Notes under the pieces: model-generated
The model's database searches: none
Seen by the model: only the letters and a program-made list of their open reading frames with translations
Told to the model about the DNA's origin: nothing
Program-made: the position numbers and the translations under genes
Source of the DNA: Thermoplasmata archaeon
GTDB lineage: Archaea; Thermoplasmatota; Thermoplasmata; Methanomassiliicoccales; Methanomethylophilaceae
Assembly (NCBI GenBank): GCA_015063125.1
Contig: SUTB01000001.1
Coordinates: 310,001 to 374,000, forward strand
DNA: 64,000 nucleotides
Reading direction: 5' to 3'
Shown: positions 40,202-60,177 of the stretch, piece by piece
Numbering within the stretch: the first letter of the stretch is position 1
How the letters are laid out: each line of letters begins with the position of its first letter

Positions 40202-40295
40202 AAGATGATCATTTCTGATCGTTTATCAGGATGATGTGTAATGCGAACACCGTCTGAACTGAACTGCCGTCGACTCAACTTCCAGAGTTGAGACG

Positions 40296-40634
40296 ATGGG
40301 ACAGACACATGTCGAATTTAGAAAGAGAGTACAGCTGAACGAATACAGGGCCGACCACGATGAACAGGAAAACGTTACATTCGTGGGAGGGTTCTCACAG
40401 GACCGTCCTCTGCCAGAGGACAATTCCGCCTTCTTCTTCGATCCTGCACCGAATGTTTTCGAAGCGGAATCATTCGCAACTGAGAGCGCCAGCGTTCTTA
40501 CCACACGGCTCTTTATGGTCTTCGGGGCATTCGACCTCGTATCCGTCTCTGCCGATGAATGGTCGGTGGAGAGGCCTGGGGAGATCCTCGGAAAGGTGAA
40601 GGTCTATTGCCGTGCAAGTGGGGTAACCGCATGA
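40296..40634 (+). CDS. Small hypothetical protein
   Basis: A possible 112-residue protein (MGQTHVEFRKRVQLNEYRADHDEQ...). The composition looks protein-like, with acidic and aromatic residues mixed, and it ends 178 bp before the HTH gene. An antisense frame of 92 codons (40226-40504) overlaps it but is serine- and cysteine-heavy and looks like a shadow. No family recognised. It may be a remnant at the edge of the mobile region. Confidence 0.4.
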   Translation: MGQTHVEFRKRVQLNEYRADHDEQENVTFVGGFSQDRPLPEDNSAFFFDPAPNVFEAESFATESASVLTTRLFMVFGAFDLVSVSADEWSVERPGEILGKVKVYCRASGVTA

Positions 40635-40655
40635 TCGCCGGCAGGAAGCACCTGT

Positions 40656-40779
40656 TGGCACGCGTGCCATATACTACGTATATGGGCCGTCAGGCGAAGC
40701 ACCCCCTGGTTCCCGTGCCAAAGACCCCTGCATTATACCTATGGTATAATGGTCGTAGAACGGTGGCACGCCTGTGCCA
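40656..40779 (+). promoter_or_regulatory. Cluster of palindromic operators before the HTH-PIN pair
   Basis: Three inverted repeats: TGGCACGCGTGCCA (40656-40669), ATTATACC-TAT-GGTATAAT (40732-40750) and TGGCAC-GCCT-GTGCCA (40764-40779), plus a lone GTGCCA at 40715-40720. The repeated TGGCAC/GTGCCA half sites and the TATA-like central palindrome suggest binding by the downstream HTH protein and autoregulation, as in toxin-antitoxin operons. Confidence 0.6.
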
Positions 40780-40812
40780 AAAACATGGCATTTTGTTGGA
40801 TGTGTGGGGTCT

Positions 40813-41823
40813 ATGAGCAAGACCCGGACGAAGGTCACGCTGCAGATGAAGGACGAGCTCCACAAGCGCGTGCTGAAGCATGAGAAGGTCGAGGACATCG
40901 CCAAGAAGATCGGGGTGTCCAGACGCACAGGCTACAGGATCCTCAAAGAGCTCATCGATGAGGGGAAGATACAGAACATCGGATACACATCGCCGGGATT
41001 CTTCGTCTCCGCAGAGGACGACAAGGCACGGAGCACGGGGGGTGGTGCATACGGCACGGCACCCCTTGAGCACACCTTATCGGAAGCCCATCTCTCGGGG
41101 AGCTTCTACACGGCTGTCCTGAGGCAGGGCGATATGGAAGACATCCGCGATGCGAGGGGGTTCTGCTACGGATACTGGTCGAAGGATGTGAAGCATCCGA
41201 CCGGTTCAGACGAGTACTCCGCTGACATCAGGATATTCGATACTCCGGTGATCCTGCGCTATCGCAGAGGCAACCGCGGGAGCATGTCGGTGAGGATGAA
41301 CATCGGACGTATTGCCTTGGATCCTTTGCAATACGACAGTTCCGAACAGGTCATCGACGTGTTCGTCCAGCGTGCCAAAGCCGTCTTCAACATCCTGGAG
41401 ATGCACGGCTGGTCCTTCTCCGAGGAGGTCAAGCTGAAGGGGAACATCCACTTTGCCTGGCCGGACCATCCTTGGGGGGAGTTCCTGGACAGAGTGTACA
41501 AGATGGCCGATGACCAGATTGTCGCAGACCATTCCAACGGGAAGCTGGAGGTGGAGATCGAGAACGGCGAGACGCCCGACGGATTATCGAACGCGCAGAT
41601 TCTCGCCCATGCCGGTGCGCATATCGAGGCCCTGCACCAGCAGGAGACGGATAATTCCCTATCCATCTACACATTGCAGGAGCTGGCCAGGCAGAACGCC
41701 GTACTTTTCCAGGAGATCCTCGAGAACCAGAAGCTGATCGGGCAGATATTCATCGAGCAGCAGACGCCCAAGGCGCCGGCCACGTACGATTTCGTCAAGG
41801 GGAAGCTGGAGGGATACCAATGA
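40813..41823 (+). CDS. Helix-turn-helix protein paired with a PIN-domain gene
   Basis: About 336 residues. The first 60 form a helix-turn-helix (KVEDIAKKIGVSRRTGYRILKELIDEGKIQNIGY), like a winged helix with wing. The middle part is beta-rich and unrecognised; the C-terminal 70 residues are helical (LQELARQNAVLFQEILENQKLIGQIF). The ORF is open from 40774, but the ATG at 40813 starts the basic N-terminus. The stop overlaps the PIN gene start by 4 nt. Upstream palindromes suggest it represses its own operon. It could be the antitoxin/regulator of the pair. Confidence 0.7.
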   Translation: MSKTRTKVTLQMKDELHKRVLKHEKVEDIAKKIGVSRRTGYRILKELIDEGKIQNIGYTSPGFFVSAEDDKARSTGGGAYGTAPLEHTLSEAHLSGSFYTAVLRQGDMEDIRDARGFCYGYWSKDVKHPTGSDEYSADIRIFDTPVILRYRRGNRGSMSVRMNIGRIALDPLQYDSSEQVIDVFVQRAKAVFNILEMHGWSFSEEVKLKGNIHFAWPDHPWGEFLDRVYKMADDQIVADHSNGKLEVEIENGETPDGLSNAQILAHAGAHIEALHQQETDNSLSIYTLQELARQNAVLFQEILENQKLIGQIFIEQQTPKAPATYDFVKGKLEGYQ

Positions 41824-42323
41824 CCCCGGGAAGAAGAGTCACGCTCGACACATGCGTACTGATATCCTATATCATTTCGAAGAAGGACGGTTCGGTCGTC
41901 AAGAAGGTCGTGAACAAGGCCAAGGAGGACGATGAGCTGATGATCACGGATATAATCCGTGACGAGCTTCTCAAGTATCCCGAAAAGAAAGGCTCCAGAT
42001 TGGGGAAGAAAGACATCGAGGATGCCCTGAAGAGGCTGGATGTCCCGATAATGGTGGTGGGTCCGTCGCCCTCTCTGGAGGAGCTGGTGGAAAGATACAG
42101 TATCCGCGACGTGGCCGATCTGCCGATCCTGTATTCGGTGGACCTGTCCCGCTCCACGATACTGGTCACATATGACGATGATTTCTTCGACGGTTCCGTT
42201 CAGGGCGTGGAGGCGGAGATAATGGATCCCCTGGCGTATCTGCGCGAGGACGATATCTGCTCCGGCAGGTTCGTTCCTAAGAACGGAAAGACCGGAAGGA
42301 TCGTGAAGTCGAGGAGGTCCTGA
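41820..42323 (+). CDS. PIN-domain ribonuclease-like protein
   Basis: A 167-residue PIN-domain protein. The first conserved acid is D10 in VTLDTCVLISYII; further acids lie in MITDIIRDELLKYP and in DVADLPILYSVDLSRSTILVTYDDDFFD (late D-x-D cluster). PIN proteins cleave RNA and often act as VapC-like toxins. ATGA overlap with the HTH gene supports a two-gene module. It is longer than typical VapC (~130), with a basic C-terminal tail (PKNGKTGRIVKSRRS). Toxin activity is inferred. Confidence 0.8.
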   Translation: MTPGRRVTLDTCVLISYIISKKDGSVVKKVVNKAKEDDELMITDIIRDELLKYPEKKGSRLGKKDIEDALKRLDVPIMVVGPSPSLEELVERYSIRDVADLPILYSVDLSRSTILVTYDDDFFDGSVQGVEAEIMDPLAYLREDDICSGRFVPKNGKTGRIVKSRRS

Positions 42324-42324
42324 T

Positions 42325-42606
42325 ATGTTTATATCGTTGGAGGACCTCACATACAGTGACCGTGGCGAAACATCCATTCCTGGATGTCACGCCATACGGA
42401 GAACGGCGGCTCCGCGTCACGGCCACTTCTACGATTCATTGACCTCGGACGCGGTTATTAATACTCGTATATCGGGTGGCGATCCGTACCGCATTGGTCT
42501 TGGGACGTATGTGCCCTTGATGTTCGACCCTACAGGCGGAGGAGCGTGGTGCGCCGCCCTTTGCGGTACGCTTCTTCTTCAATCATCTGATGGGGTGCTC
42601 CCATGA
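42325..42606 (+). CDS. Doubtful small ORF before the overlapping gene chain
   Basis: A 93-codon frame beginning 1 nt after the PIN stop and ending with a TGA that overlaps the next ATG by 4 nt, the same spacing as the following genes. Its sequence (MFISLEDLTYSDRGETSIPGCHAIRRTAAPRHG) is rich in Thr, Arg and Gly and has no recognised features. A TATA-like TTATTAATA at about 42453 suggests that the downstream chain may have its own promoter inside this stretch, so a shorter product from ATG 42520 or none is possible. Confidence 0.3.
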   Translation: MFISLEDLTYSDRGETSIPGCHAIRRTAAPRHGHFYDSLTSDAVINTRISGGDPYRIGLGTYVPLMFDPTGGGAWCAALCGTLLLQSSDGVLP

Positions 42607-42758
42607 AGCGGAGGGCCGAGAGGCTAACCCCGTTAACGGAGAAGCCCACCACGGAGTACAGGTGCGAGGAATGCGGATGCCTCTTCAGGACCATCCCGTT
42701 CCCCCCCTGCACCAAGCCGTTATGCGATGCTTGCATCTCGAGGAGGTGCTGGGAATGA
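42603..42758 (+). CDS. 51-residue zinc-ribbon protein
   Basis: A small basic protein with two CxxC pairs, CEECGC at residues 22-27 and CDAC near residue 42, forming a likely zinc ribbon. It opens a chain of four genes, each overlapping the next by exactly 4 nt (ATGA), that ends in a serine recombinase. Small zinc-ribbon proteins of this kind are typical of archaeal viruses and integrated elements. Its role may be DNA binding or assistance to the recombinase. Confidence 0.65.
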   Translation: MKRRAERLTPLTEKPTTEYRCEECGCLFRTIPFPPCTKPLCDACISRRCWE

Positions 42759-42913
42759 GCTATGTCTGCAAAGGATGCGATGTGCATTGCAGAAGGACGA
42801 GGGCACAGATGGAGGATATCGGTGTCCTGGGGCTGCATTCCGACGACATCACCGATATCATGTGCCCCAATGCCGGCTGGATGACACAGTTCTCGAAGGA
42901 GGTCGGGGAATGA
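42755..42913 (+). CDS. 52-residue cysteine-containing small protein
   Basis: MSYVCKGCDVHCRR... with CxxC and CxxxC-like spacings at the N-terminus and a lone cysteine later (DIMCPNAGW), possibly another small zinc-binding protein. It is held on both sides by 4-nt ATGA overlaps. A longer in-frame extension exists upstream but would run through the 51-residue gene and is not favoured. No family recognised. Confidence 0.6.
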   Translation: MSYVCKGCDVHCRRTRAQMEDIGVLGLHSDDITDIMCPNAGWMTQFSKEVGE

Positions 42914-43152
42914 TCGAGATCACCGTCGAAGGGGATCTGGAGGAATGCAGGCATGCGATCTACCAGCTGAGGCTGCTGTCCGATCTGCATATCAGCACGA
43001 TCTACGAACAGTGCATCCCTTCTAAGGTACGGGCGAGCTACTACGTCATTCTTGACGTGGTAGGGGATCCGAGATGGTCTCTGGAATCGCTGCCGGACCC
43101 GGACGGCTTCTTCAAAGCTGTCCATAGGTACTCATGGGGTGATTTGGAATGA
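42910..43152 (+). CDS. 80-residue hypothetical protein
   Basis: MIEITVEGDLEECRHAIYQLRLLSDLHISTIYEQC..., a compact alpha/beta sequence with no recognised motif. It is the third gene of the ATGA-overlap chain and directly precedes the recombinase, so it may be a recombination-directionality or accessory factor. That is inference from position only. Confidence 0.6.
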   Translation: MIEITVEGDLEECRHAIYQLRLLSDLHISTIYEQCIPSKVRASYYVILDVVGDPRWSLESLPDPDGFFKAVHRYSWGDLE

Positions 43153-43931
43153 ACGACGAGACTTACTCCGTAGTGCTGTATGCGAGAGTGTCAACTGACG
43201 ACAAGGGTCAGACCAACGAGACGCAGATCCGCGACATGAAGGCGTACTGCCAGAGGAACGGCTTCATCATAGCCGATAACGGCACAGCCATCTACCAGGA
43301 CGAGCAGACGGGGAAGAACGACAAGCGCCCGGGATTCAGGGAGATGAAGGGCCGGATATCCGAAGGGGACATCGACTATGTGATAGCGAGGAACCAGGAC
43401 AGGATATCGAGGGAGCCCGTCGATTATCAGAACTTCATCGACTATGCGAGGACGTTCAGGGTCAGGGTAAGGTATGTGGACAATTCGGCAACGCCGGAGA
43501 CGGTGGACGGAGTGATACTCGATTCCGTCCAATCCGGTTTGGCCAAGGCCGACAACATGAAGCGCTCATCGACTACCAAGAGCGGGATGATGACGGCGAA
43601 GCTCAACGGGGTGCACTGCGGCAGGCCCATCAGGTTCTGCTGGTCCGACGAGGTCGTGGCCAACAGCGCTAGGATCCGCACCGAGGGGAGAGGGAGGACT
43701 GTGATCCAATCCGTGGACACTGTGATGGACTTCGCCCGGCAGGGGATGCTGAGGTCGGAGACGTCGAAGGCGATCGGAGTATCCGAGATGACCCTCACGA
43801 GGGCCCTGCGCTCAAAAGGGATACTCGAGGAATTCGAGAGGATCTCTGCGGAAAACCGCTCAAAAGGGATACCGCTCAAAAGGGTTGTAGAAGACGGGGA
43901 AAACTCGCTCAAAAGGGAGGAGGAGATATAA
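43149..43931 (+). CDS. Serine recombinase (resolvase/invertase family)
   Basis: A 260-residue site-specific recombinase. The N-terminal catalytic domain has YARVSTDD with nucleophile Ser15, DEQTGKNDKRPGFREM and the arginine motif ARNQDRISR. A long helix links to a C-terminal helix-turn-helix (TSKAIGVSEMTLTRALRSKGI). It is resolvase-sized, not a large integrase. The 3' end of the gene contains four GCTCAAAAGGG repeats that are translated in two frames (see 43810-43979). It is the last of four ATGA-overlapping genes. Confidence 0.9.
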   Translation: MNDETYSVVLYARVSTDDKGQTNETQIRDMKAYCQRNGFIIADNGTAIYQDEQTGKNDKRPGFREMKGRISEGDIDYVIARNQDRISREPVDYQNFIDYARTFRVRVRYVDNSATPETVDGVILDSVQSGLAKADNMKRSSTTKSGMMTAKLNGVHCGRPIRFCWSDEVVANSARIRTEGRGRTVIQSVDTVMDFARQGMLRSETSKAIGVSEMTLTRALRSKGILEEFERISAENRSKGIPLKRVVEDGENSLKREEEI

Positions 43932-43979
43932 GGCTCAAAAGGGAACCCTATTGCGCGGGGAAGGAACCCTTTTGCGCCA
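43810..43979 (+). repeat. GCTCAAAAGGG repeat cluster in and after the recombinase gene
   Basis: Five exact direct copies of GCTCAAAAGGG at 43810-43820, 43858-43868, 43874-43884, 43907-43917 and 43933-43943. Two inverted variants follow, CCCTATTGCGC (from 43946) and CCCTTTTGCGCC (from 43967). Copies 1-2 are read as RSKG and copies 3-4 as LKR, in different frames, and copy 5 lies beyond the stop. The sequence is therefore probably conserved as DNA, for example as recombinase binding sites or a crossover site. Confidence 0.75.
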
Positions 43980-44001
43980 GGAGCTCGAACCTAGAGCCGC
44001 T

Positions 44002-44396
44002 GTGCATTGTCGCGATGCTCCTCATCGTCTTCCATCACGTGTTCTATTGGGGGGGATGAGCTGCCGGATTCGCCCGACCTCAATACGGCGGTGAATGCTA
44101 CCGAGAGGCTGGGGGGTAGGTTGGGGTATTGGCGTTCTTCCTCATCACCGGGCACTTCATGATTCTCCAGAAATTCACGGTGAGGAAGCTCGTGAGGATG
44201 GTGCTCGAGGGCGGATCTGCTGGTGTCGGTAATGTGCATGTTCCCGCTGTGCGCGGTAGGGTGCATGTTGCTGGGGTTCTCAGTGTGCATCGCCATAGAC
44301 AAGCTGAGGATAGCTCTGGTGTTCAATCCGTTGAAGGAGAGGATAAGCAAGATGACTGAGAAGGTGGAGAGGCATCTGGAGGAGGTGATGGGATAA
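44002..44396 (+). pseudogene. Remnant of a membrane acyltransferase (acyltransferase 3 family)
   Basis: Fragments in different plus-strand frames join into one family-like sequence. The first is AMLLIVFHHVFYWGG from 44002, with the typical HH motif, ending at a G7 run. The second is AFFLITGHFMILQKFTVRKLVRMVLE from about 44129, after a G6 run. The third is MCMFPLCAVGCMLLGFSVCIAIDKLRIALVFNPL... at 44232-44396, which looks like the C-terminal helix and tail. Frameshifts at G runs and missing middle helices mark it as a decayed O-acyltransferase of the OafA type. Sequencing errors in the G runs could account for two shifts but not for the lost length. Confidence 0.6.
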
Positions 44397-44429
44397 TCGG
44401 GGTGTCCCTCACGGAACACCCCTGTGGGT

Positions 44430-46595
44430 TTAGAAATCGAAAAGTGTCTTCACAACCCAGGTCTTGTCCTGCTGGATACCGAGGTCCGAATCCGTTTTTT
44501 CCTCGTCTTCATCGGGGGAGTAGTCTTCGATATCCTGTATCCTCTCGTATTCGTGAAGATACTTTATCGGGTATGGGACGACTGACCCGCGATGCAGCCT
44601 CACGAACGGGACCAGCATCATGTTGAACATGTACTCGGGCACAGGGATTCCGTCCTCCGAGTCCACGACCTTTATCTTGTGGAGGTTGCACGCCCAATTG
44701 ATCTCACGATTATCCGCATCTACCCTCTCCCCGACGAAGTAGTATGTGTCTCCCGTGTTGAAATCCACATGTTTCCTGATATTGGTGCAGGCCTTGATGT
44801 AGAGATCGCGATTCTTCTCTGTCCTGAGCGTGGGCATCTTATCTCCAGGGTGGAGCCTGTCATAATCCTCCTTCGCCCTCAGATCGTTGCGGATCTTATC
44901 TATCTCGGGAATCATTTTGACATCCGTGGGCAGAAGCGAATAAACGTTGTCACCGTCGGAGATGACCCCTTTGATTCCCTGATTCTCTTTCGAGAATTGG
45001 CTCCAGCATAGGCGCAGCACGGGATCCTCTTCGAGTTCGGATTCCTGGTATATCCTGAAATCGATGTCGCCGTCCCTTGAGAGGTGCATGCAGGTCATGT
45101 TGCCATACACGACCTCCCTCTTCTTCCTCTCCCAGTCGTCGGCCGACTCATCCCCTTTGGGCCTGATGCGCGGACGGCTGTAGAAGTACCAATCACGGTC
45201 CTGCCAGTTAGAGGTCCCGTCCATCAGGTTATCGTTGAACCATCCGAGGAAGCTCTGTTTGCCTGCGATGACATCGTGTTTGACCATCAGATCGATAATT
45301 ATGTTCTCAACGGCGCTCCTGAGGCCAGCGTTCTGCTTCTTGTCAATGTCCTCTCCCTCGATTACCTTGGGGTTGACGGCTTCCGTACCGTCGTCGTTCT
45401 TTCTTTCCTTATCCTTGGTGTAATAGAGCTTTCCTTGTGTGGATATGGCCAGATGCTGCAGGGGGACATCATTGCGGGGGCAATGGTTCTTGTCCCCTTT
45501 AGCTGTCTGTATGATCTAGATGTTGAACCCGTCGGTACGGACCTCGTCCGATGGTTCGGCCTCGATGCCATAACGGTACCCTATCACCTTTGACAGTGTA
45601 TCTGAGATGATCCTCGACCTATCGTTGCCGACTTTGTCGATGATGTTGATTCTGATTCCTTTGTAGCATCTCACCAGCTCGTTGAAGAACGAATTGTCAA
45701 TGGGTTTCTTGACCCCCAAAGAGTCCCCATCGAAGAGATATGTGCGTTCGAATTCCAGCCCGGCACCGACATCCTTGTAGGCTTTGCGGAATTTGCGCAT
45801 GGAGTTCCTGAGCCTACCCATCTTGCTGGCATCGAATTCCTCTGACTTGTCGATGTTTATGAAGGGGATCGAGGCTTTATCCATCCCTTTGTATCCGCGG
45901 GCAACATATCTCTCTCCGTGGCCCATGAGGTCGCCGAAGCTATCGGCCATATTCAACTGGCTGTTAGATGCAACATACGGGATGTACCTGTCCAGGGTCT
46001 TGGCGGCCTTGGGATCCTCGGCGACTTTCTTCACATTACCGAAAGATTGGGCATTGAAATCGACCCTGTTGTCACCGAACAGCCTGCACGAACCGTCGGC
46101 TTTGTGATACGAGACTTTGAACGCGGTCACCTTATCTTTCGTGATGTCCCCGTTCTCATAGGTGTAAATGGAACCCTGGAGGTTGGAATAGGTCATCCTG
46201 TCCTCGGCGTCCTCATCCTTGTTGATCCTCGCGCTGCCGATGTTCAGCAGATCGATGATGAGAGTCACATCACCCACCATGTTCAATGAATCAATCTTCC
46301 TGCAGACATCCATGGTAACATCGACCGTGTTGAGCTTCTGGATGATCTTGTCGCGTTCCGATTTCCCATCCAGAAGGACGAAGAAGGAGTCGGCCCCCAT
46401 CTCGTACCTGATGGCGAGGACTGTCTTGAAAGGCTTGAGGAGCCTCGCCGCCTCGTTTCTCTTCTTGATATCGACGTATTTTGTCCTCAGAATCACGAAT
46501 CTATCGAAGAAAAGGTCCTCGTCGAACTCGAGATTGACCCTGTTGACTAGTATCCCTTTCGTCTCCTGTTTCTCACCGGCATCCGTTCTGCTCAT
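44430..46595 (-). CDS. Partner of the helicase-nuclease; 721 residues with in-frame TAG codon
   Basis: An unrecognised soluble protein. A frame of 359 codons from 46595 meets TAG at 45516-45518 and continues in the same frame, fully open, to TAA at 44430. The 76 codons between the TAG and the next ATG (45287) look normally coding (IIQTAKGDKNHCPRNDVPLQ...), so two independent genes are unlikely. Codon 360 would be pyrrolysine or a suppressed amber. Without readthrough, a 359-residue protein results. Features seen: IDLLNIGSARI near residue 120, a Lys/Asp-rich centre and an acidic tail (YSPDEDEEKTDSD). The C-terminal stretch SVVPYPIKYLHEYER vaguely recalls the PIWI-domain end, a weak likeness only. 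Its ATG overlaps the helicase stop (ATGA). Confidence 0.75.
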
Positions 46596-49500
46596 AGATA
46601 TCCCTCCCTTATAGTGCTGAAAAACGTTTCATTGGCTTCCATCCCCTTCTTTCCAACCTCGTAGAGGTACGGCACGGCGATTATCTCCTTGCCATCCTCG
46701 GTGGGGTATCTTATGACCGGGTTGAACTTCCTGGAGCCGTTGGTCACGATGTTGATGACGTAGACTATTCTACCGTCGCATTTGTTCAGTTTCCTGCTGA
46801 TGTGGTTTATAAGGCGCTTGGTGGCCAGTTCGTCCTCGTAGTAGTTCTCGTTCCAGTCCTTGAAATCGACGAATACCCCGTCAACGAGCATGTAATCGAA
46901 TTGTTCGTACAGGTGGTGGGGCATCTCCCTTAGTCTTATCCCGGTCATTTCCTCGATGATCCTTGAACCGACGAGCTCGCCGAGTCCGCCCATGTAGATG
47001 TTCCTGAATATCGGCGGCGACATGAGCTTCTGATTGGGCTCGAAGGACAGCGGGATGCCAAGGCTCCTGAGATACTCTTTCACATATGGTATCCTGCACA
47101 TCAGGTCCAGCTTGGCGGTCTCTGGGGATACGGAATACCAGGTCTTGTTCAGGTCCTTCCTGTTCAGTTTGGCCGGGATGCCGTCGAAGGAGATCTCTAG
47201 ATCGTCCGTTCCCAGGCTGTCGAAATCGTTCTTCAGCGTGAAGTGGTATGAATCCATCTCCGATGGGGGCTTTACGTAGCCATATCTGTGAATGGTCTTC
47301 TCAATCCCGGCGAGGTCCGGCATCTCTAGAGAGCATGTGGGGTTCGCGAGGACGAAGTCTCTGATGTCCCTCCATTTGATTATGGCGGTCTCATCACCGC
47401 CGTACACGGCATAGCGTAGGTCGTCCAGCATACCGACGATGCTGTGGGATGAACGGAGAGCGTTGTTGATGATGAGCTCAGGGGTGAATTTCGACTTAGC
47501 CTCGCCATGCTTGTGCGCCTCTTCATACAATCTCTCGAACTCATAGCTGTGGAATCTGCCATAGCACGGTTTCTCCAGGGCGAAAGTGCCGCTGTAGGAT
47601 ATTTCGCTGTCGTAGAAGATGTAGCTGTTCTTTCTCTTCCATCCTGTCCTGCACATACGGCCGACTGCCTGGATGATTATCTGTGCCTTGGCCAGAAGAT
47701 ACGCTTCTGAATTCCTGTAGTGGCTGACGCTGACGTTGCTGTCCTGCGTATAGCACTGCCTGAACGCGACCTCGGTCTGTTTCTTCTTCTCGTTTATCTC
47801 GATCTGGCCTATGGCATCCATGGACTCGTTGTAGAACAGGTAGTCGTCAAGGGAGGATTTATCCCCGTATTCTATGAGGGGTGCTACGCTTCTAGGGTCG
47901 TCCAGGTATATGGCATCGAAATCTTTCCTTCCATCCAGCATCTCGTAGTCGTTCATCCCGTCTCTTATCCAGACGAATTCGTCCGGTTCATTGGATTCGG
48001 GCAACTTGTACTGGAGATTCTGTCCCGCCCCCAGCGTCTTGTAGGCGGTGATAACCAGTACCTTCTTGCCTTCGGACAATCTACTGATCACCTCGTCTTT
48101 CATGACGCTGTAATTGCTACCGTTAATCTGGATGATGGAGATGGATGGTCTGCCGGATTTTTCGTTTATAATCTTCTCCACGTCGCCATTCCACCAGACG
48201 TTGATGGAAATGTTGTTCCTGTTTGCTATCTTTTTGAGCAGATATTCGAGGTTCTTGGTGTTGAAGCGCGATTCCTTCGAATCCTTGACATGTGGTGTGA
48301 AGAATGCTATCATGGACTGGATGTCCTGATGTTTTACGAAGGATTCGATGACTGAGAATGCGTTGATGTACCTCAATCCATAGACCTTATTGCCCTCCTC
48401 CGAGTCAATCTCCAAGTATGAGAAGATCTGATCCGAGAGATCCTCATCACCGGTCACCCTCTCCCAGGCTGAACGGGAGTAGGTTTCGAACCTATCCAAT
48501 TCCACGACATTCAACTTGGATTTACCCTCGTAATAGCCCTCGTTGTTGGCCTTTATGCGATCTTTGACCCCTTCAATCTCCTCTTCGTTGAAATCATGGA
48601 AGTGGACCCCTACATCCTTCAGGTACTGCAACGAGAAGTTGCTGGCAGGGGAATCGATATCCCCTGTCGCAGATAGACCGATGACCTTCGTTGTCTCGCA
48701 CATGTGGCGGAGGATCAGTTCAGGAGTCATGTCGTATTCCGTGTAGTACATGTGTGTTTGGAGCTGACGGTTGGTGCTGTCCCTGAGACCTATGTATGAG
48801 AAGCCCCTGCTGAATATCGTGGGCTCCAGTAGCTCCAGTTTCCTTTGGCTGTCGGTCTTGACACGGTTGTGAACAACCTTGTAATGGACGAATTCCGCCA
48901 TATCGGGCTCCATGTCGAGAGCATCGATGATAGAATCGACGCAGTTCATGAAGGATTTCTTCTCAGAATCCTTCTTCCTGTCCTCCTCGGCCTTCTTGTC
49001 ATCCTGTGTGTACAAATAGTTGAAAGCTAGGTCACGAACGAGTCTGCATACCATGTTGAACAGGGAATTCAGTTCTTTGAAAAGGGAACTGATCCTCGAT
49101 CTGGTGGAAGTGATGTTCTGGTTCGAAAGGATGACGTTGTATCTCTCGGATTCGTCGGTTTTGATGGTGAATGCCGTACCTATGCTGTACGGTTCGTAAT
49201 CCTGGAACATGAACGAGGCAGACGGCGGGTCCGTGTATTCGCCGTTGGGTTTGACACCGTACTGCTTGAACAGGTATTCCATGTGGTACCTGTTCCTGAT
49301 CTCGACCGTCCTGTCGATTATGTTCTCGAAACGGGACCTGATGGTCTCATTCCTGTTATTGGCCCACCAAGGGCCCTCCTTGATCATCAATTCCGGTAGG
49401 TGACTCCATCCAGGCAACCTGAGGTATAGGTTCCTGAAAGCACGTACGGCATCCACTTGATTCTTTCTTTCCTCTATCAGGGTGTCCTTGATGACGTTCT

Positions 49501-50311
49501 TGAAAGTGTCGAACTCATCGATCACGATGATATGCTCGCTTAGGCGTGAGCTCTCCTCCCCTGTTTCCTTATCGTGCCTGAGATCGGTCTCGCTCCATAT
49601 CGTGAAGTTCGCACTGACTAGGTTGTCGATGGGATACATGAATTTTTTATCCGACATCAGTTTGATTGGAAATTGGTCGAAGAAAGTCACAGGATACAGT
49701 TTACCCATCCATTTGTATCTGGGGTCGTTGCGTATCTTCTCCGTGCGTTTTGCCGGGCTTTGCAGCGGTTTCAGTATAGCGTTGATGGCTTTTCTGAAAT
49801 CGTGCTCGGAGCTCCTGAACTTATCTGCCCTGTCCCTGAGGTGCTCGGAATCCGACTTGATCTCAACGGCCTTGTTGTATAGTTCCATGTCCCTGAGGAC
49901 CTCGGACAGCACCCTTTTGCTGATATTGAATTCTGTGAAGAGATCGAGGATATCCTTCCTCATGGACGGGTCGTAATTATGCCTAAAGGAGTCTATACTA
50001 GATTCAACAGGCAGCACGTATTTTTCCCAAAGTTCTTTGGGATCTCTTTTGTATATCTTGGTCCAGACCTCCTCCATCTCCTTGATAGGGAGGTTCTTCG
50101 TCTGTTCAGTGATGAAAATGAACAGCAGTTCCGGGTGCTTGATAGCCATCCCCAGGAGAGATATGCAGGCCTCGTAAGTCTTCCCTAGTCCTGTGGGGTA
50201 GCCCTCTATGAAAATGCCGTGCAATGACTGGGCCTTATGGATGTCTGACAAGTCTTTGTAGCTACCTTCGATAAACCTATCGGTAACCTGGGCTATACTG
50301 AATTGAGCCAT
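46592..50311 (-). CDS. SF2 helicase with nuclease-like C-terminus
   Basis: A 1239-residue protein. Walker A GYPTGLGKT is at residues 37-45, a DEAD-box-like VIDEFD near residue 267, and motif VI QAVGRMCRTG near residue 878, giving a split SF2 helicase with a long insertion between the two ATPase lobes. Near residue 1147 the sequence FDYMLVDGVFVDFKDWN has the D-(x)n-D-x-K pattern of a PD-(D/E)xK nuclease, with GLGELVGSRIIEEMTG before it. Function is inferred as nucleic-acid unwinding and cleavage in defence. It is the first gene of a two-gene operon with the amber-containing partner and was not matched to a named defence system. Confidence 0.8.
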   Translation of the reverse strand: MAQFSIAQVTDRFIEGSYKDLSDIHKAQSLHGIFIEGYPTGLGKTYEACISLLGMAIKHPELLFIFITEQTKNLPIKEMEEVWTKIYKRDPKELWEKYVLPVESSIDSFRHNYDPSMRKDILDLFTEFNISKRVLSEVLRDMELYNKAVEIKSDSEHLRDRADKFRSSEHDFRKAINAILKPLQSPAKRTEKIRNDPRYKWMGKLYPVTFFDQFPIKLMSDKKFMYPIDNLVSANFTIWSETDLRHDKETGEESSRLSEHIIVIDEFDTFKNVIKDTLIEERKNQVDAVRAFRNLYLRLPGWSHLPELMIKEGPWWANNRNETIRSRFENIIDRTVEIRNRYHMEYLFKQYGVKPNGEYTDPPSASFMFQDYEPYSIGTAFTIKTDESERYNVILSNQNITSTRSRISSLFKELNSLFNMVCRLVRDLAFNYLYTQDDKKAEEDRKKDSEKKSFMNCVDSIIDALDMEPDMAEFVHYKVVHNRVKTDSQRKLELLEPTIFSRGFSYIGLRDSTNRQLQTHMYYTEYDMTPELILRHMCETTKVIGLSATGDIDSPASNFSLQYLKDVGVHFHDFNEEEIEGVKDRIKANNEGYYEGKSKLNVVELDRFETYSRSAWERVTGDEDLSDQIFSYLEIDSEEGNKVYGLRYINAFSVIESFVKHQDIQSMIAFFTPHVKDSKESRFNTKNLEYLLKKIANRNNISINVWWNGDVEKIINEKSGRPSISIIQINGSNYSVMKDEVISRLSEGKKVLVITAYKTLGAGQNLQYKLPESNEPDEFVWIRDGMNDYEMLDGRKDFDAIYLDDPRSVAPLIEYGDKSSLDDYLFYNESMDAIGQIEINEKKKQTEVAFRQCYTQDSNVSVSHYRNSEAYLLAKAQIIIQAVGRMCRTGWKRKNSYIFYDSEISYSGTFALEKPCYGRFHSYEFERLYEEAHKHGEAKSKFTPELIINNALRSSHSIVGMLDDLRYAVYGGDETAIIKWRDIRDFVLANPTCSLEMPDLAGIEKTIHRYGYVKPPSEMDSYHFTLKNDFDSLGTDDLEISFDGIPAKLNRKDLNKTWYSVSPETAKLDLMCRIPYVKEYLRSLGIPLSFEPNQKLMSPPIFRNIYMGGLGELVGSRIIEEMTGIRLREMPHHLYEQFDYMLVDGVFVDFKDWNENYYEDELATKRLINHISRKLNKCDGRIVYVINIVTNGSRKFNPVIRYPTEDGKEIIAVPYLYEVGKKGMEANETFFSTIREGYL

Positions 50312-50665
50312 TTTTTCACCTTCTATCCGAGATCAACCAGTTGCCTTAACCGAAGCTAAGGGCCGATGCGAATCGGATGGAGGAGTGAAGGAATACTGAT
50401 TGATAAGCCTATTGAACAGAAGGGTTTGACCAAAAAGATGCAACGCAGTTTGAGAATCGCCCGTGGGAGAAGAGGGATATCGGACGATACCTCCATTTCC
50501 ACTGTCCTATTCTTATACTACCGACCGCTACGCCGTCCCAAGGAAGACAGAATAGCTCTGTGCCGAAGACACGGTCCCCGATCCTGAACCGACAAGCAGA
50601 TCCCGTATACGCCTTTTTCATCGATCTGCGAAGGAATTCCCATAAATCAAAAGGACGAGGACATA
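50312..50665. other. Gene-free divergent region
   Basis: 354 bp between the helicase start and a Sel1 gene. Only short non-convincing frames are present. A TATA-like CCATAAATC lies about 25 bp before the Sel1 ATG. No tRNA, repeats or clear operator were seen. Confidence 0.5.
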
Positions 50666-51385
50666 ATGACATCATCAATAGATTTCCCGAAAGCACCAGC
50701 GAACGCGAGCGAGGACATCGTACAGGCCTACATCGATGCGGCCGACGGCGACATGGAGGCCCTGTTGGACCTGGGGCTGTTCAGTGACGACAGTGACGGC
50801 ATCCCCATGGCCCACAGGCTGTTCTTCCTCACCAAGGCGGCCGAGGTCGGCAGCATACATGCGATGAGGGGGCTCACGCACGCCTATCTCGAGCCGGGGG
50901 AGCTCCATGACTTCGACAAGGCGAGGACCTGGTGCACCATAGCGGAGGAGCACGGCGACCCCTGCGCGAACTGCTGCGGCAGGATCCTCGACGTTCTAGG
51001 CGACGAGGACTGCGGGATGCTCTCCGACGCGTACGAGGAGCTCTATCAGATAGGCTCCGAGAACGAGTTCAACCCCGTTGGCCTGGGGGATTCGTTCTTC
51101 ACCGGTACGGAAGTCGTAGAGCAGGACATGGGCGTGGCGTTCAGGTTCTACATGGCCGCCGCAGCCGAGGGGGATGCCGAGGCGAGGAGGAAGGTCGGGT
51201 ACATGTACGAGCACGGGCTCGGCGTGGAGAGGTCATTGGACGATGCCGTGGGGTACTACGCGCTGGCATGCTGGGATGACGACGAGGCCGGATGGCTGTT
51301 CCGCTCGCTGATCTACCGCGAGGGGGACATCCGCATACCTGATTGGGCGCTGGAGATGGAGCGAGCGTCCCGCGATACGCTTTAA
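50666..51385 (+). CDS. Sel1-like repeat protein in the accessory region
   Basis: A 239-residue protein with three or four Sel1-type repeats (AYIDAADGDMEALLDLGLFSDDSDG, AMRGLTHAYLEPGEL, ARRKVGYMYEHGLGVERS) and a strongly acidic composition. GC-rich codon use sets it apart from the flanking helicase and type III genes. No signal peptide. It stands alone with a hairpin (CCGCC-GAT-GGCGG, about 51391-51403) just past its stop. Role unknown; other Sel1 genes of the window are in the housekeeping part. Confidence 0.78.
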   Translation: MTSSIDFPKAPANASEDIVQAYIDAADGDMEALLDLGLFSDDSDGIPMAHRLFFLTKAAEVGSIHAMRGLTHAYLEPGELHDFDKARTWCTIAEEHGDPCANCCGRILDVLGDEDCGMLSDAYEELYQIGSENEFNPVGLGDSFFTGTEVVEQDMGVAFRFYMAAAAEGDAEARRKVGYMYEHGLGVERSLDDAVGYYALACWDDDEAGWLFRSLIYREGDIRIPDWALEMERASRDTL

Positions 51386-51580
51386 TCCCGTCCGCCGATG
51401 GCGGTACGAATTTTCATTCAATATACGGAACCGATCGATCGGGGGAGCCTGGGCCCTTTCCGCGTCCAGGGTGCCTCGGACCGGCCCGTTCCGTCTATTG
51501 CATGAAACTTTCAAACGAGTTTAGCTCCCACCTTTATTGTCCATCCAACCATTAAATCCTTGTAAAACAATATGGGAATC

Positions 51581-52026
51581 GTCCGGGAACGGATTTTAGC
51601 GTCATCCGCGCGAAGTCTATCCTATCCCAAGAAGTGCGCATCCTACTACACCGCACTGTAGTCTTCTCCGTTCTCAGACCCTTCTTCTCAGAAAGGCGGG
51701 CATCCCATAGGGCCCTCTATCCTCAGTATCTCCAGTTCCTCCTCGGAGAGCTCGTCCCTGTCGGCGTAGGCGTTGTAGTATGTGATACGGTCGAAGGTAA
51801 GCACGGGCTCGCCGAAGCCCGGGAAGACCCATTCCACAACGCAGTCCTTGGAATGCTTCCTGTGCTTCAGTTTGCGGAACCTTGCGAAGTCCTCCTCGGA
51901 GTAGATCATGCGCATGTCATCGCAGAGCGCGCATAAGAAACCATCAAAGAAATGTGTCCGGGGACGGCGTCATCCGCGCCTATCCCGATGGTGCGCAACA
52001 CTGCGCCCCTCTGTTCTCAGACCCTT
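51581..52026. repeat. Imperfect direct repeats flanking a small gene
   Basis: Copy A (51581-51684) and copy B (51956-52026) share, in the same order, GTCCGGG-ACGG, CGTCATCCGCGC, CTATCCC, GTGCGCA and TTCTCAGACCCTT; copy B is shorter by several small deletions. They flank the 75-codon gene on the minus strand. They may be a decayed duplication or ends of a small mobile unit. Confidence 0.6.
51688..51915 (-). CDS. Small hypothetical protein between direct repeats
   Basis: A 75-residue protein (MRMIYSEEDFARFRKLKHRKHSKDCVVEWVFPGF...) with a basic N-terminal helix and an acidic C-terminal helix (RDELSEEELEILRIEG). No family was recognised. It is bracketed by the two imperfect direct repeats at 51581-51684 and 51956-52026, which suggests that gene and repeats form one unit. 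Could be a small toxin or antitoxin; there is no direct evidence. Confidence 0.55.
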   Translation of the reverse strand: MRMIYSEEDFARFRKLKHRKHSKDCVVEWVFPGFGEPVLTFDRITYYNAYADRDELSEEELEILRIEGPMGCPPF

Positions 52027-52087
52027 TCGCGGAACATGTCCAGGCATCGGAGCATCCTACCTCTCCGGGGCCCTTCTTATGTTCTTA

Positions 52088-52126
52088 GTACCAAATGTAT
52101 TTTTACCATTAAAAAGATATTGGTAC
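52088..52126 (+). promoter_or_regulatory. Inverted repeat around the promoter of the CARF regulator
   Basis: GTACCAA (52088-52094) and TTGGTAC (52120-52126) form a perfect inverted repeat with 25 bp between. The gap contains an AT-rich TATA-like TTAAAAAGATA, and the second arm ends 1 nt before the ATG. Binding would block a leaderless start, consistent with autoregulation by the encoded winged-helix protein. Confidence 0.6.
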
Positions 52127-52127
52127 G

Positions 52128-52748
52128 ATGAGCAGGGAGATACACCTGTACATCGCCGGAGGGGACGACTCCAAGCTGTTCCCCGTGCTGTCCAGCGGCC
52201 TGGCGATGGACAGGCTGGTCGTCCTATGCTCCGGCCCGGATGGGACCATCGGACTGGTGGAGGGTCTGGAGAGGATAGGATTCGGAGGAATCGATGCGAT
52301 CCGGACTGACCTAACGGATTATCAGAGGGTCTACGACAGCGTACGCTCGGTCTGCTCGAATTATTGCAAGAAATACGAGGATGCGCACTTCGACGTGAAC
52401 ATATCGTCGGGGGGACCTGTGGCGGTGGCGGCGATGGTGAATGCCGTCCAATCGTTCGATGCCGATCTGTATTACATAAGGGAAGGGGAAGTCGTCAGGA
52501 AGAGGTCCGACGATCTGGAAGGGCTGGCGGAGCTGAGGGGCAAGCGCAGGGTGCTGGAGACGTTCCTCAGGTTCAGGGACTCCAGTTCGTACACCAATAG
52601 GGAGCTCATGGGGAGTCTGTCCAAGCAGGGCCTCGTCCATCATACCAAGGAGCTGTCGAGGATGGGGCTGATAAGGAGGGAGGGCTCCGTGAAGTACCCC
52701 GTGTGGGTCCTGACCGATAAAGGGGAGCAGGCGCTGAGAAGGCTCTAA
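52128..52748 (+). CDS. CARF-winged-helix regulator (Csa3/DUF6293-like)
   Basis: A 206-residue two-domain protein. The N-terminal Rossmann-like half resembles a CARF domain, with the ligand-loop motif NISSGGPVAVAAMVNAV near residue 90 in the place of the N-x-T/S-G-G-T-x motif. The C-terminal half is a winged helix (RRVLETFLRFRDSSSYTNRELMGSLSKQGLVHHTKELSRMGLI). Such proteins are regulators that may sense cyclic oligonucleotides made by CRISPR or CBASS-like systems. No cas gene or CRISPR array is in the window. It may control the type III RM locus or the helicase operon next to it. Confidence 0.75.
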   Translation: MSREIHLYIAGGDDSKLFPVLSSGLAMDRLVVLCSGPDGTIGLVEGLERIGFGGIDAIRTDLTDYQRVYDSVRSVCSNYCKKYEDAHFDVNISSGGPVAVAAMVNAVQSFDADLYYIREGEVVRKRSDDLEGLAELRGKRRVLETFLRFRDSSSYTNRELMGSLSKQGLVHHTKELSRMGLIRREGSVKYPVWVLTDKGEQALRRL

Positions 52749-52781
52749 CGCAGAACAGTCGGCGAAGTTCATTTGTCCTTA

Positions 52782-53042
52782 TCATCTACTTCCAAATAGC
52801 AGAAAAATACCTAACCCAAAGCCTAACAGAAAGAGGAATTCTTTGGCCACGATGTGGGCAATAAGTTCTTGATAATCGCTTACGTCGTCGGAAAAGGCTA
52901 TGAATAATGCCACTAACGCTCCAACGACCCCACATGTAAGGAGCACGTCAGACATTGCATCTATAACTGCGTCTATGACATATGCTCCTACCGCGGCAGC
53001 TATGCCGTCACCTAAGGAAAGCCTATTCCCTGTTTTGCTCAT
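52782..53042 (-). CDS. Small membrane protein at the end of the type III RM operon
   Basis: An 86-residue protein with two or three hydrophobic segments (AAAVGAYVIDAVIDAMSDVLLTCGVVGALVALFIAF and EFLFLLGFGLGIFLLFG). It starts 1 nt past the Res stop and is the last gene of the Mod-Mod-Res run. It is not a usual type III RM component. It may be an added membrane effector or an unrelated passenger; no family recognised. Confidence 0.6.
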   Translation of the reverse strand: MSKTGNRLSLGDGIAAAVGAYVIDAVIDAMSDVLLTCGVVGALVALFIAFSDDVSDYQELIAHIVAKEFLFLLGFGLGIFLLFGSR

Positions 53043-53043
53043 A

Positions 53044-55791
53044 TCAGGGTTTCAATCTGCTGAGATATTCCTCTAGTTTCTCAGAGGATATGGATCCTTT
53101 TGCCTTTTTCTCTTCGAATTCGAAGACCATATAGTATTTGAAAGCAGAACCGGCGCATCTCTCCCATTCAGAACCGATCTTCATCTTCAGTTCCGTATCG
53201 GGGTTATCCAACTGCGATCCTTTGGCCTCAATCAAGACTGTCACGCCGGTCTTCGTCCTTACTATGAAATCTGGATAGTGGCCTATTGGACCGTTGAGTG
53301 AGAACTCATCCACGCCTCTTGAGACAACACGATGCCACCAAAGGACGTTATCGCATCTATCAATGACATGGAGGATCCTCTCTTCAAGTCCTGATACGCC
53401 CTGACAGCGCTCATACAGCGATTTGGCGTAAGATATGCTTGATTTTACACTATCATGCGGGTCTATCTTTAGCGGGAAAGTGTAGTAGCCGTCCTTGTTT
53501 TTCAAATCACATAGGATATCCGAAGACGTGCACTTCTCATCGAATTGTTTGACACGATAGTCTTTTGCTAGAGATTCGATCTTTTGTTTGATTTTTGCAG
53601 CAATCTCCTTCGGGTTCTTCCTTGCACTATTGAGCGTATCAAGGGACATATCCTCGATAAGCAAAGCTACATATCTCTTGATCTCAGAGGTCTCTATGTC
53701 GTCCATACGGTTAAGGAGGGTGATTATCTCTGAGGTGAATTTCTGTACTTCTGCATCGTCCTTGGATTCGACTTCTCTGAACCTGTTGCGCTGCTGTTCC
53801 ATCTCTTCTTTTGAAAGGACAGAATACTTCAAGACCTCGTCTCCGCCACGCAGTTCCCATTTTCCGGCGTTGATATCTGTCAAAGAGTAGTTTATCTGTC
53901 TGTCCATCTTGGATAGTTTGAAGCCTTCTGTCAGAGCCTTATCTGACAGGACTGCTACATAATCTCCGAATAATGATGAGGAACCGCGATACATGAATTT
54001 CGGGATCTTAATCGTCTTGGCATCCTCTTCAAATTCAGATTTCATCTTGGCCTTTCTGCTGTATTCCGTAAAATCGCCCCCTTCCTCGTCGTCATCGCCC
54101 TCATGTTCCTCGTTATACTCCCCACCAAGTTTCCTGGCTTCATCAGGATCTATTTTGGAACCGGATTCTCCTTGATCATGACCGCCAGATTTTCCAGAAT
54201 CAGAGGTGACCTGATTTGTTCCACTCCCTGACGTATCTTCTGGAGCTAGTCCGGGAGTTGTGCCCTGCCCGTTTCCATTAAGACCTGCTACAACAGTTGG
54301 GTCGAAATAATCTCCTTCCGTATCTCCGGATTCTTCACCACCTTTATCGTTACCGTTCTCCTGTTTATCGATAGCGCTTTGATCTCCCTCAGAGCCCTCG
54401 TCACCCCCACCCGTGTAATCGTCAAGCGTGGGGGTCGAACCTACGCGATAGTCTTTTTCGGTGAATCCAGCGTCTTTGAGTCCCGTAGAGACACCTTGCA
54501 ATGTTTCATGGAATACCTTTGAAGAGGTGATGATGTATGACATGTTCAGAATCGGATCCTCGAATCTTGCGGCCCCAGGTTGTCTTAGAACACGTCCGAC
54601 TATCTGTTCTACTTCGGTTTCTGACGACCTTCTCGCTATTGAAGCAAGAATGTATGCAAACGGACAATCCCACCCCTCTTTGAGAGCATTAACCGTGATG
54701 ATGTAACGAATCTGGCAATCCTTATCTTTAAGATCTATGCCCTTCAATTCATCTTTAGTGGATACTTTGATGGCAATCTGATCCTCTGGTATGCCTGATT
54801 TAACTAGAAGGGACTTTATACTCTCAAAAGTGACCGACTCCTCATCATTCTTAGGTTGGGCCTGAATCAATGCGATTGGACGGACATATCTTCCGGACTT
54901 CTTGTATTCCAATTCAGCTGCCTTTTCCAGGGTATTGCGGTAATCCATTGTCGTGTATATGACGTGTTCAACATCTGGTCTACCGTAGACGATCATCGGA
55001 ATCTTGACCATGTTCTCCTTTTTCAGAGTCCCCGCTGTAACAATCGAGATGATATTGCTGTCCTTTTTCGGAGTAGCTGTCAATTCGAGAATGAATGAAG
55101 GGTTCATGGAAGACAACGCTTTCTTAGTTAAGCTGGAGCCTGCATTGTGACTCTCGTCAAGAACGATTACTGGCGAGAGGGCATTTATCACGCCCATCAA
55201 AGATGGAGGTATGCCAAGCTCTTCATCCTGGCCTTTGGTAAAGTCCATGAATGTTCCAAGGGCTCCGTTCTGACGATACATCCTCCTGTTGTCGGGATTC
55301 GATGTTCTCATGGAACTGTAGCTCAAAACACAGATCGAGAGCTGGTCCTGTAAAACCTGGGGGTTGAAGTTCTGACCGTTGAGCAGTTCTTCGATGTCAT
55401 AGACAGTAACACGTCCTGAGAAGTCTGCATTGAGTCTCTGACGATACGGGTGGTCCGGATTCTTTAGAGCATCCTTGGTCTGTTGCAATATGGCGGAAGA
55501 TGGTACTAACCATATCACCAGTTTGTTATCACGAGGCATTCCAGAGAATATGGTTTTCAAGGCCGCACAAGCAATGAAGGTTTTTCCTCCACCTGTAGGG
55601 ACCTTTAGACATACATCTGGAGTTCCTTCAAAAGTGCGCCTGTATGCACGAACTCCATCTTTCCCGATGTTGTAGCCCTTCGAGTCCCATAGCTGATCGT
55701 AGGCTTTCGAACAGTCCTTTGTGTCAGAAAGGGCTTCGATATAATTCGAAACATCTTCAAGCACAGTTTTCTGATAATTCTTCAATTCCAT
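53044..55791 (-). CDS. res: Type III restriction enzyme, Res subunit
   Basis: ATP-dependent restriction subunit of 915 residues. SF2 motifs: PTGGGKT at 65-71, VIVLDESHNAG near 212 and VEQIVGRVLRQPG near 400. Between about residues 455 and 575 lies a Gly/Asp/Glu/Ser-rich low-complexity linker. The C-terminal endonuclease has PDFIVRTKTGVTVLIEAKGS, the PD-(D/E)xK motif. Together with Mod it cuts DNA that has two unmethylated head-to-head sites. The ATG lies 2 bp past the Mod stop. The long linker is unusual, as the motor and nuclease are normally joined by a shorter spacer. Confidence 0.92.
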   Translation of the reverse strand: MELKNYQKTVLEDVSNYIEALSDTKDCSKAYDQLWDSKGYNIGKDGVRAYRRTFEGTPDVCLKVPTGGGKTFIACAALKTIFSGMPRDNKLVIWLVPSSAILQQTKDALKNPDHPYRQRLNADFSGRVTVYDIEELLNGQNFNPQVLQDQLSICVLSYSSMRTSNPDNRRMYRQNGALGTFMDFTKGQDEELGIPPSLMGVINALSPVIVLDESHNAGSSLTKKALSSMNPSFILELTATPKKDSNIISIVTAGTLKKENMVKIPMIVYGRPDVEHVIYTTMDYRNTLEKAAELEYKKSGRYVRPIALIQAQPKNDEESVTFESIKSLLVKSGIPEDQIAIKVSTKDELKGIDLKDKDCQIRYIITVNALKEGWDCPFAYILASIARRSSETEVEQIVGRVLRQPGAARFEDPILNMSYIITSSKVFHETLQGVSTGLKDAGFTEKDYRVGSTPTLDDYTGGGDEGSEGDQSAIDKQENGNDKGGEESGDTEGDYFDPTVVAGLNGNGQGTTPGLAPEDTSGSGTNQVTSDSGKSGGHDQGESGSKIDPDEARKLGGEYNEEHEGDDDEEGGDFTEYSRKAKMKSEFEEDAKTIKIPKFMYRGSSSLFGDYVAVLSDKALTEGFKLSKMDRQINYSLTDINAGKWELRGGDEVLKYSVLSKEEMEQQRNRFREVESKDDAEVQKFTSEIITLLNRMDDIETSEIKRYVALLIEDMSLDTLNSARKNPKEIAAKIKQKIESLAKDYRVKQFDEKCTSSDILCDLKNKDGYYTFPLKIDPHDSVKSSISYAKSLYERCQGVSGLEERILHVIDRCDNVLWWHRVVSRGVDEFSLNGPIGHYPDFIVRTKTGVTVLIEAKGSQLDNPDTELKMKIGSEWERCAGSAFKYYMVFEFEEKKAKGSISSEKLEEYLSRLKP

Positions 55792-55793
55792 GT

Positions 55794-59105: not shown

Positions 59106-59114
59106 TGATTCACC

Positions 59115-60041
59115 TCATGCATACTTGTTGAAGACCTTCTTGATCCTCACAGCCTTCTCCATCATCCAGTCGAACATCGATTCGAGAGATTCGGATTCAT
59201 CAACATCCTTTCTGATATCGCAGTAGGAGGCCTTTTTGTTCTCTTTGTAGTTCCATTCCATTTTAAATCCGAGATCTTTCTCGATATCTTCTTTGTGCTC
59301 CTCGAACCTCTTGAAGAGCTCCTTATCCTCATCGATCCACATCTGGGCCCCGATGGCTGTTATCGTGGCATCCTTGGAATATACATTGAGGGGGATGTCG
59401 AAGCCCTTGCAGCCCTTCATCATGGTCATCCAGTGGCTCCCGCTAGGTTTACGCCTATCTGTACCGGGGAATTCCTTCAGGAAGATCTTGTTGGTGCTGG
59501 TGTAGTCGATGAATCTGCTCCAGTAATCATATCTCATCTGCCTCCGGGGGCTGGTCTCGTTTTTGGTAGATTGAATGTACTCATTGGGCTTCTCGATGAT
59601 GGTGAATGTGGGTGCGGGTAACGAGTTACCAATCCTTATGACTTCGATTTGCACTAGGAAGAATCCCTTGTCAGTCATGTTATTGTTCAACCACTCAATC
59701 GCGGAAGCATGTTCTGAACGTGCATCCTCCACAACCCACACTATAATCGAAGCGTCCTTACCTGCCGCATATGTGATGATCTTCCCCAGATGGTCGTGGT
59801 CGCTCTTCTCGAACTGATTCTCGATAATGACTTTCCTGCCTGTATCGGCCTCCTCTCCGACGATGTCGGCCCTGAATCCCCCCACCTTGTCCTCACGGAT
59901 CTCGGTCTGTATGGTTCCTAATCCAAGGGTCTCGGACAGCAGTTCTATGTTCTCCTCGCTGAACAGCCAATCGGAGAATTCGTTCTCGTTGGGCCAGATA
60001 TCCCTAATCTTGCAGTGTGAAATGCGCCCCAGCTCCTTCAT
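59115..60041 (-). CDS. DUF4268-like nuclease-fold protein of the RM locus
   Basis: About 308 residues. The N-terminal half resembles a PD-(D/E)xK-type fold: GFRADIVGEEADTGRKVIIENQFEKSDHDHLGKIITYAAG, with D and E...Q in place of E-x-K. The C-terminal half (RMRYDYWSRFIDY, then GSHWMTMM and IGAQMWIDEDKELFKRFEEHKEDIE) matches the DUF4268 pattern. Such proteins often lie with restriction systems. The ORF opens at 60095, but the ATG at 60041 (MKELGRISHCKIRDIWPNE) is the natural start, with GGGAT upstream. It is the first gene of the type III RM operon, 9 bp before Mod 2. Confidence 0.8.
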   Translation of the reverse strand: MKELGRISHCKIRDIWPNENEFSDWLFSEENIELLSETLGLGTIQTEIREDKVGGFRADIVGEEADTGRKVIIENQFEKSDHDHLGKIITYAAGKDASIIVWVVEDARSEHASAIEWLNNNMTDKGFFLVQIEVIRIGNSLPAPTFTIIEKPNEYIQSTKNETSPRRQMRYDYWSRFIDYTSTNKIFLKEFPGTDRRKPSGSHWMTMMKGCKGFDIPLNVYSKDATITAIGAQMWIDEDKELFKRFEEHKEDIEKDLGFKMEWNYKENKKASYCDIRKDVDESESLESMFDWMMEKAVRIKKVFNKYA

Positions 60042-60177
60042 GATTATCCCAATCGTACCAGTAATCCCGTGCGGACTTTTTAATCTAACGAACAAAAGGG
60101 TACTATGATTTGCAACCTAGCTACTGTCCACAGGGGTCCATTGGAAGGTATTTACTGTAACAACTACATGCCCCAGC

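What the first reader, a model, noticed from the sequence alone, without database searches (positions are those of the whole stretch)
44430..46595. In-frame amber codon splits a 721-residue defence-operon protein
TAG at 45516-45518 lies between two frames that are in phase, and the 76 codons after it before any start are plainly coding. No gene in this window ends in TAG, so TAG appears to be avoided as a stop. In a Methanomassiliicoccales-like organism with pyrrolysine, this gene may encode a Pyl-containing protein outside methylamine metabolism, or be controlled by amber readthrough.
Basis: partly seen in the sequence, partly recalled or inferred. Interest (0 to 1): 0.85.

Follow-up and report, generated by a model that had tools for sequence, protein, structure and literature searches.

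The report
Amber-containing DdmE Argonaute in pyrrolysine archaeon
A gut-type methanogen that reads the usual stop codon TAG as the rare amino acid pyrrolysine carries that codon in the middle of an Argonaute-like anti-plasmid protein (DdmE), most likely because TAG is simply an ordinary sense codon in this genome.

Summary
On the minus strand, 46595-44430 is one 721-codon frame broken only by TAG at 45518-45516 (codon 360). It is not two genes. Profile and fold searches identify the read-through product as DdmE, an Argonaute-like protein, directly downstream of ddmD (4-base overlap). The 64 other aligned homologues carry no stop at this position; they have R, V, C, I, Q, L, K, D and others there. 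The first start codon after the TAG would delete conserved positions. The genome has complete pylTSBCD, and TAG interrupts mtmB (two), mtbB (two) and mttB. In 464 kb sampled, at most one of 371 confident genes could end at TAG. All 13 in-phase TGA/TAA cases are simply followed by a neighbouring gene. Two core genes carry TAG here but a Glu codon or TCG in a same-species genome, so TAG arises by point mutation and is tolerated. Best reading: TAG360 is decoded as pyrrolysine, a probably near-neutral substitution at a variable strand position. Pyl prediction in defence proteins has precedents (Cas1 in 'Ca. M. alvus', Cas3 in ISO4-H5), so this is a new member of a known kind. Regulated read-through is not excluded; a hairpin 3' of the codon is only suggestive. 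No protein evidence exists.

The parts
44430..46595 (-). ddmE: 721-codon frame read through one TAG; Argonaute-like DdmE protein
   Evidence: Profile of 33 homologues (A2) vs PDB DdmE 9iw3 E=9.8e-64 and V. cholerae DdmE E=3e-41; Foldseek of the AlphaFold model: top six hits all DdmE, then Argonaute/Piwi; PADLOC DdmE, weak, 0.0037
45516..45518 (-). in-frame TAG, codon 360, on a predicted beta strand (356-362) of the MID-like region
   Evidence: homologue residues at this column R30 V10 C7 I4 Q4 L3 K2 D2 S1 A1 (window row left out)
45450..45509 (-). predicted RNA stem-loop starting about 7 nt 3' of the TAG (weak evidence)
   Evidence: z -2.4 and -3.05; 1 of 166 control windows as low; no Rfam match
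46592..50311 (-). ddmD: helicase-nuclease partner, overlapping ddmE by 4 bases (ATGA)
   Evidence: PADLOC DdmD 6.2e-23; PDB DdmD 9ix4 2.1e-33, 8u0u 1.1e-20, Walker A-like PTGLGKT
45285..45287 (-). first possible internal start (ATG, 76 codons after the TAG); starting here would drop near-invariant Q380, H381, T383, E435
53044..59105 (-). neighbouring type III restriction-modification genes (Res, two Mod)
59115..60095 (-). PDC-S11 candidate defence protein (DUF4268)
43149..43931 (+). serine recombinase (resolvase) next to ddmE
40256..64000 (.). strain-specific region not found in a same-species genome (left edge at 40256; right edge not found)

Best explanation
The gene is an intact ddmE of a DdmDE anti-plasmid system. 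In this archaeon TAG is essentially a full-time sense codon for pyrrolysine, so the ribosome, using tRNA-Pyl(CUA), inserts Pyl at residue 360 and makes the whole 721-residue Argonaute-like protein. The TAG most likely arose as a point mutation at a substitution-tolerant strand position, often a long side chain in homologues, in the MID-like region, and was kept because it is nearly neutral. As a side effect, function of this defence system depends on the Pyl cassette. Shown by sequence: one frame, homology across the codon, complete pyl genes, near absence of TAG stops, strain-level sense-to-TAG differences in two core genes. Inferred: actual Pyl insertion, its efficiency, neutrality, and DdmDE function.
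For: pylS over cut-off, tRNA-Pyl with CTA anticodon, pylB, pylC and pylD adjacent (identified from gene order and sequence). TAG interrupts MtmB x2, MtbB x2 and MttB in this genome, with Pfam matches running through. Of 371 confident sampled genes only one could really end at TAG. Control: 13 TGA/TAA genes with in-phase coding downstream all have a start codon 0-8 codons after the stop, i.e. a next gene, versus 76 for ddmE. All homologues recovered full-length are single frames without a stop at the site. Fold model mean pLDDT 77.5, 93 in residues 351-360, best PDB matches DdmE. FMN reductase codon 103: TAG here, Glu in the same-species genome G150; ThiF-like codon 171: TAG here, Ser TCG in G150.
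Against: No protein or expression data. TAG360 is unique among homologues, so no conservation of Pyl supports it. The DdmE is divergent (34% to the nearest relative, a fragment), so selection since the mutation could not be measured. A sequencing error at this codon cannot be excluded without reads.
Confidence: 0.87

Rival explanations
1. Regulated or partial read-through: TAG360 is both stop and Pyl codon, so the ratio of a 359-residue N-terminal fragment to full DdmE follows Pyl supply (methylamine availability), perhaps helped by a local RNA structure.
For: A stem-loop begins a few nt after the TAG, z -3.05, lower than 165 of 166 control windows. One archaeal release factor aRF1 is present and could still act at UAG.
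Against: Eight other TAG genes in this genome show no consistent structure; ddmE has another window equally low far from the TAG; no Rfam PYLIS match; after testing nine genes the hairpin is marginal. TAG termination is nearly absent in the sampled genes.
Confidence: 0.07
2. Nonsense mutation or sequencing error: ddmE is a recent pseudogene or the base call is wrong.
For: No homologue has TAG at the site; the region is strain-specific.
Against: No other stop or frameshift in 721 codons; interrupting codons in the sample are TAG only, never TGA or TAA, which random nonsense mutation or error would not produce; the genome has a complete Pyl cassette.
Confidence: 0.05
3. Two separate proteins: an N-terminal half ending at TAG and a C-terminal half from an internal start.
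For: An ATG at 45287 opens a 285-residue frame.
Against: Homologues recovered full-length are single proteins; residues 361-436, including near-invariant positions, would be lost.
Confidence: 0.01

Closest known systems
Predicted Pyl-containing non-methylamine proteins of Methanomassiliicoccales (Cas1 of 'Ca. M. alvus', PMC4153887; Cas3 among 46 amber genes of ISO4-H5, PMC5011839)
   Same: In-frame amber in a defence gene of a Pyl-decoding gut methanogen with rare TAG stops (1.6% in 'Ca. M. alvus'); Cas1 homologues lack the amber
   Different: Here the protein is DdmE, an Argonaute-family protein of DdmDE; same-species sense versus TAG differences are shown in two core genes
Archaeal code with all TAG as pyrrolysine (Science 2025; recalled from memory, paper not held)
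   Same: TAG behaves as a sense codon across the sampled genome
   Different: Only about 28% of this genome was sampled and no proteomics exists for it; one gene might still end at TAG
Pyl in tRNA-His guanylyltransferase of Methanosarcina acetivorans (appearance by neutral evolution; recalled from memory)
   Same: Isolated amber in a protein outside methylamine metabolism, read as neutral
   Different: Different protein; one case in a genome that keeps more TAG stops
DdmDE of Vibrio cholerae and Lactobacillus casei (PDB 8u3k, 9ezy, 9ixm)
   Same: Homologous DdmD and DdmE, Argonaute fold
   Different: Archaeal, about 16% identity in the structural alignment, ddmE carries an amber codon; the aligned L. 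casei residue is Gln

Membership tests
Pyl-encoding UAG gene | Complete pylTSBCD in the genome | tested here: met
Pyl-encoding UAG gene | Homology continues in phase across the TAG | tested here: met
Pyl-encoding UAG gene | TAG rare as terminator, and only TAG interrupts genes | tested here: met
Pyl-encoding UAG gene | Pyl residue found in the protein | not testable with these tools
   needs mass spectrometry
PYLIS element | Rfam match or conserved structure 3' of UAG | tested here: inconclusive
   No Rfam match, but mtmB in L014 does not match either; hairpin z about -3; covariation not testable without close homologues
DdmDE | DdmD helicase-nuclease homologue | tested here: met
DdmDE | DdmE homologue by profile and fold | tested here: met
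DdmDE | ddmD and ddmE in one operon | tested here: met
   4-base overlap at 46592-46595; same order in G034 and G059
DdmDE | DdmE lacks the Argonaute catalytic tetrad | not tested
   -
DdmDE | Plasmid elimination | not testable with these tools
   -

The most novel reading that the evidence does not exclude
Pyl360 in the MID-like region, or its supply-dependent decoding, has been selected to couple DdmDE anti-plasmid activity to the cell's pyrrolysine (methylamine) state, with the 3' stem-loop as part of the control.
Probability: 0.05. Interest if true: 0.8.

Novelty: new member of a known kind. Interest (0 to 1): 0.45.

Why it matters
It adds, as far as I could find (no held paper joins the two topics in a relevant way), the first Argonaute-family protein predicted to contain pyrrolysine. 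It also gives within-species examples of sense-versus-TAG differences in core genes, evidence that TAG drifts as a sense codon in this lineage. Practically, standard gene callers split such defence genes in two, so they can be missed in defence surveys; neither half alone matched DdmE in PADLOC.

Tried and rejected
Single-sequence scan of genome contigs found nothing; the alignment-based scan found 71 loci. Viral contigs held no relative and no copy of the site, so an independent read of the codon from another record was not obtained. The whole genome was not available as a file, so a 464-kb sample of stretches was used. PYLIS: no Rfam match. RNA structure at eight other TAG genes showed no common signal. 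The right edge of the island was not found in the stretches held. Two-gene and pseudogene readings were rejected for the reasons given. An original structural paper on DdmDE was not held.

Full report
What is there. On the minus strand, an ATG at 46595 opens a frame that runs to TAA at 44430, with a single interruption, TAG at 45518-45516, codon 360. Coding potential, from a codon model trained on long frames of the same genome, is 0.40 per codon before and 0.36 per codon after the TAG. The first possible start after the TAG is 76 codons away.

What the protein is. Neither Pfam on the read-through protein nor PADLOC on the separate halves recognises it. The upstream gene, 50311-46592, overlapping by four bases, is DdmD (PADLOC 6.2e-23; PDB DdmD 2.1e-33 with a Walker A-like motif). 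The read-through protein itself hits DdmE in the PDB (1.4e-5), and a profile of 33 homologues hits L. casei DdmE at 9.8e-64 and V. cholerae DdmE at 3e-41. An AlphaFold model (mean pLDDT 77.5, pTM 0.82) finds DdmE structures as its six best PDB matches, then Argonaute and Piwi proteins. DdmE is an Argonaute-like guide protein that recruits DdmD, a helicase-nuclease, to plasmids (general knowledge; the review PMC12904381, describes the mechanism but appears to swap the two names in its text, while its table names DdmD as the unwinding and nicking part).

The codon among homologues. Seventy-one loci were found. Those recovered full-length are single frames, mostly about 580-750 residues; a few loci are cut by contig ends or look truncated. 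In an alignment of 65 sequences, including archaeal ones from Methanosarcina and Methanolobus, the column of codon 360 holds R30, V10, C7, I4, Q4, L3, K2, D2, S1, A1, leaving out the window's own row. It lies on a predicted strand (356-362) in the region that, by order of elements, should be the MID domain (inference), next to near-invariant N358 and conserved I362. The position is variable and often carries a long side chain, so a bulky lysine derivative is plausible there. A start at 45287 would delete Q380, H381, T383 and E435, all near-invariant, so two proteins are not plausible.

The genetic code of this genome. pylS scores over its cut-off; tRNA-Pyl with anticodon CTA lies beside it, with pylB, pylC and pylD in a row. 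Twenty-one stretches (the window included), 464 kb or about 28% of the 1.65 Mb genome, were sampled. Of 371 confident genes, 328 end in TGA, 35 in TAA and 8 at TAG; seven of these eight continue as coding sequence, and the eighth (L022) has a TGA five codons further on. The read-through set includes MtmB twice, MtbB twice, MttB, an FMN reductase and a ThiF-like protein, whose Pfam matches cross the TAG; for the FMN reductase the crossing match is the flavodoxin-like one. As a control, 13 TGA or TAA genes have in-phase coding sequence downstream, but each has a start within 0-8 codons, i.e. a next gene. So in this sample only TAG interrupts genes, and TAG hardly ever terminates them.

How the TAG arose. 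A same-species genome (G150) is 99% identical over the FMN reductase and has Glu where this genome has TAG, and has Ser TCG where this genome has TAG in the ThiF-like gene. Relatives in the genus also have sense codons at both sites. TAG thus appears by single base change in intact core genes, as expected if it is a sense codon. G150 lacks ddmDE: no DdmE match, identity stops at window 40255 and nothing from 47000-64000 is found. ddmE therefore lies in a strain-specific region with a serine recombinase, a PIN protein, type III restriction-modification genes and PDC-S11. Its own TAG cannot be dated, because the nearest relative with the site (same genus, 34% identity) has Val GTT.

Regulation. 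A stem-loop shortly after the TAG is more stable than shuffles (z -2.4 and -3.05) and than 165 of 166 control windows. It is not seen at most other TAG genes, another ddmE window is as stable, Rfam finds no PYLIS, and a gathering-threshold search does not find one at mtmB either. It is recorded as suggestive only.

Comparison with the literature. Borrel et al. (PMC4153887) found 16 amber-containing genes beyond the methyltransferases in 'Ca. M. alvus', Cas1 among them, with 1.6% TAG stops, and argued that in-frame ambers become stable mutations there. ISO4-H5 has 46 amber-containing genes including Cas3 (PMC5011839). A 2025 report of archaea with all TAG codons as Pyl is recalled from memory and could not be read here. 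This finding is a new member of that kind, in a protein family for which I found no earlier report.

Verdict. Observation confirmed; Pyl-containing DdmE is the best explanation (0.87); regulated read-through 0.07; error or pseudogene 0.05.

Noticed in passing
window 60178-60777 (+): A second possible in-frame TAG (codon 33 of the extended frame, 60274-60276) upstream of the ATG at 60289 of a small gene with a weak DUF4404 match; coding score before it is good. The gene may start earlier and contain Pyl.
   Followed up: partly
L016:12931-13560 (-) and L109: FMN reductase with TAG at codon 103 here but Glu in a same-species genome.
   Followed up: yes
L027:9524-10231 (-) and L118: ThiF/HesA-like protein with TAG at codon 171 here but TCG in a same-species genome.
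   Followed up: yes
window 40256-64000: Strain-specific defence region (DdmDE, type III RM with two Mod genes, PDC-S11, PIN, serine recombinase); right edge not found.
   Followed up: partly
window 55794-59105 (-): Two tandem type III Mod genes next to one Res, perhaps two specificities sharing one nuclease.
   Followed up: no
L014:16637-17386, L017:17050-17526, L029:677-1006: Further candidate genes with in-frame TAG, of unknown function.
   Followed up: no
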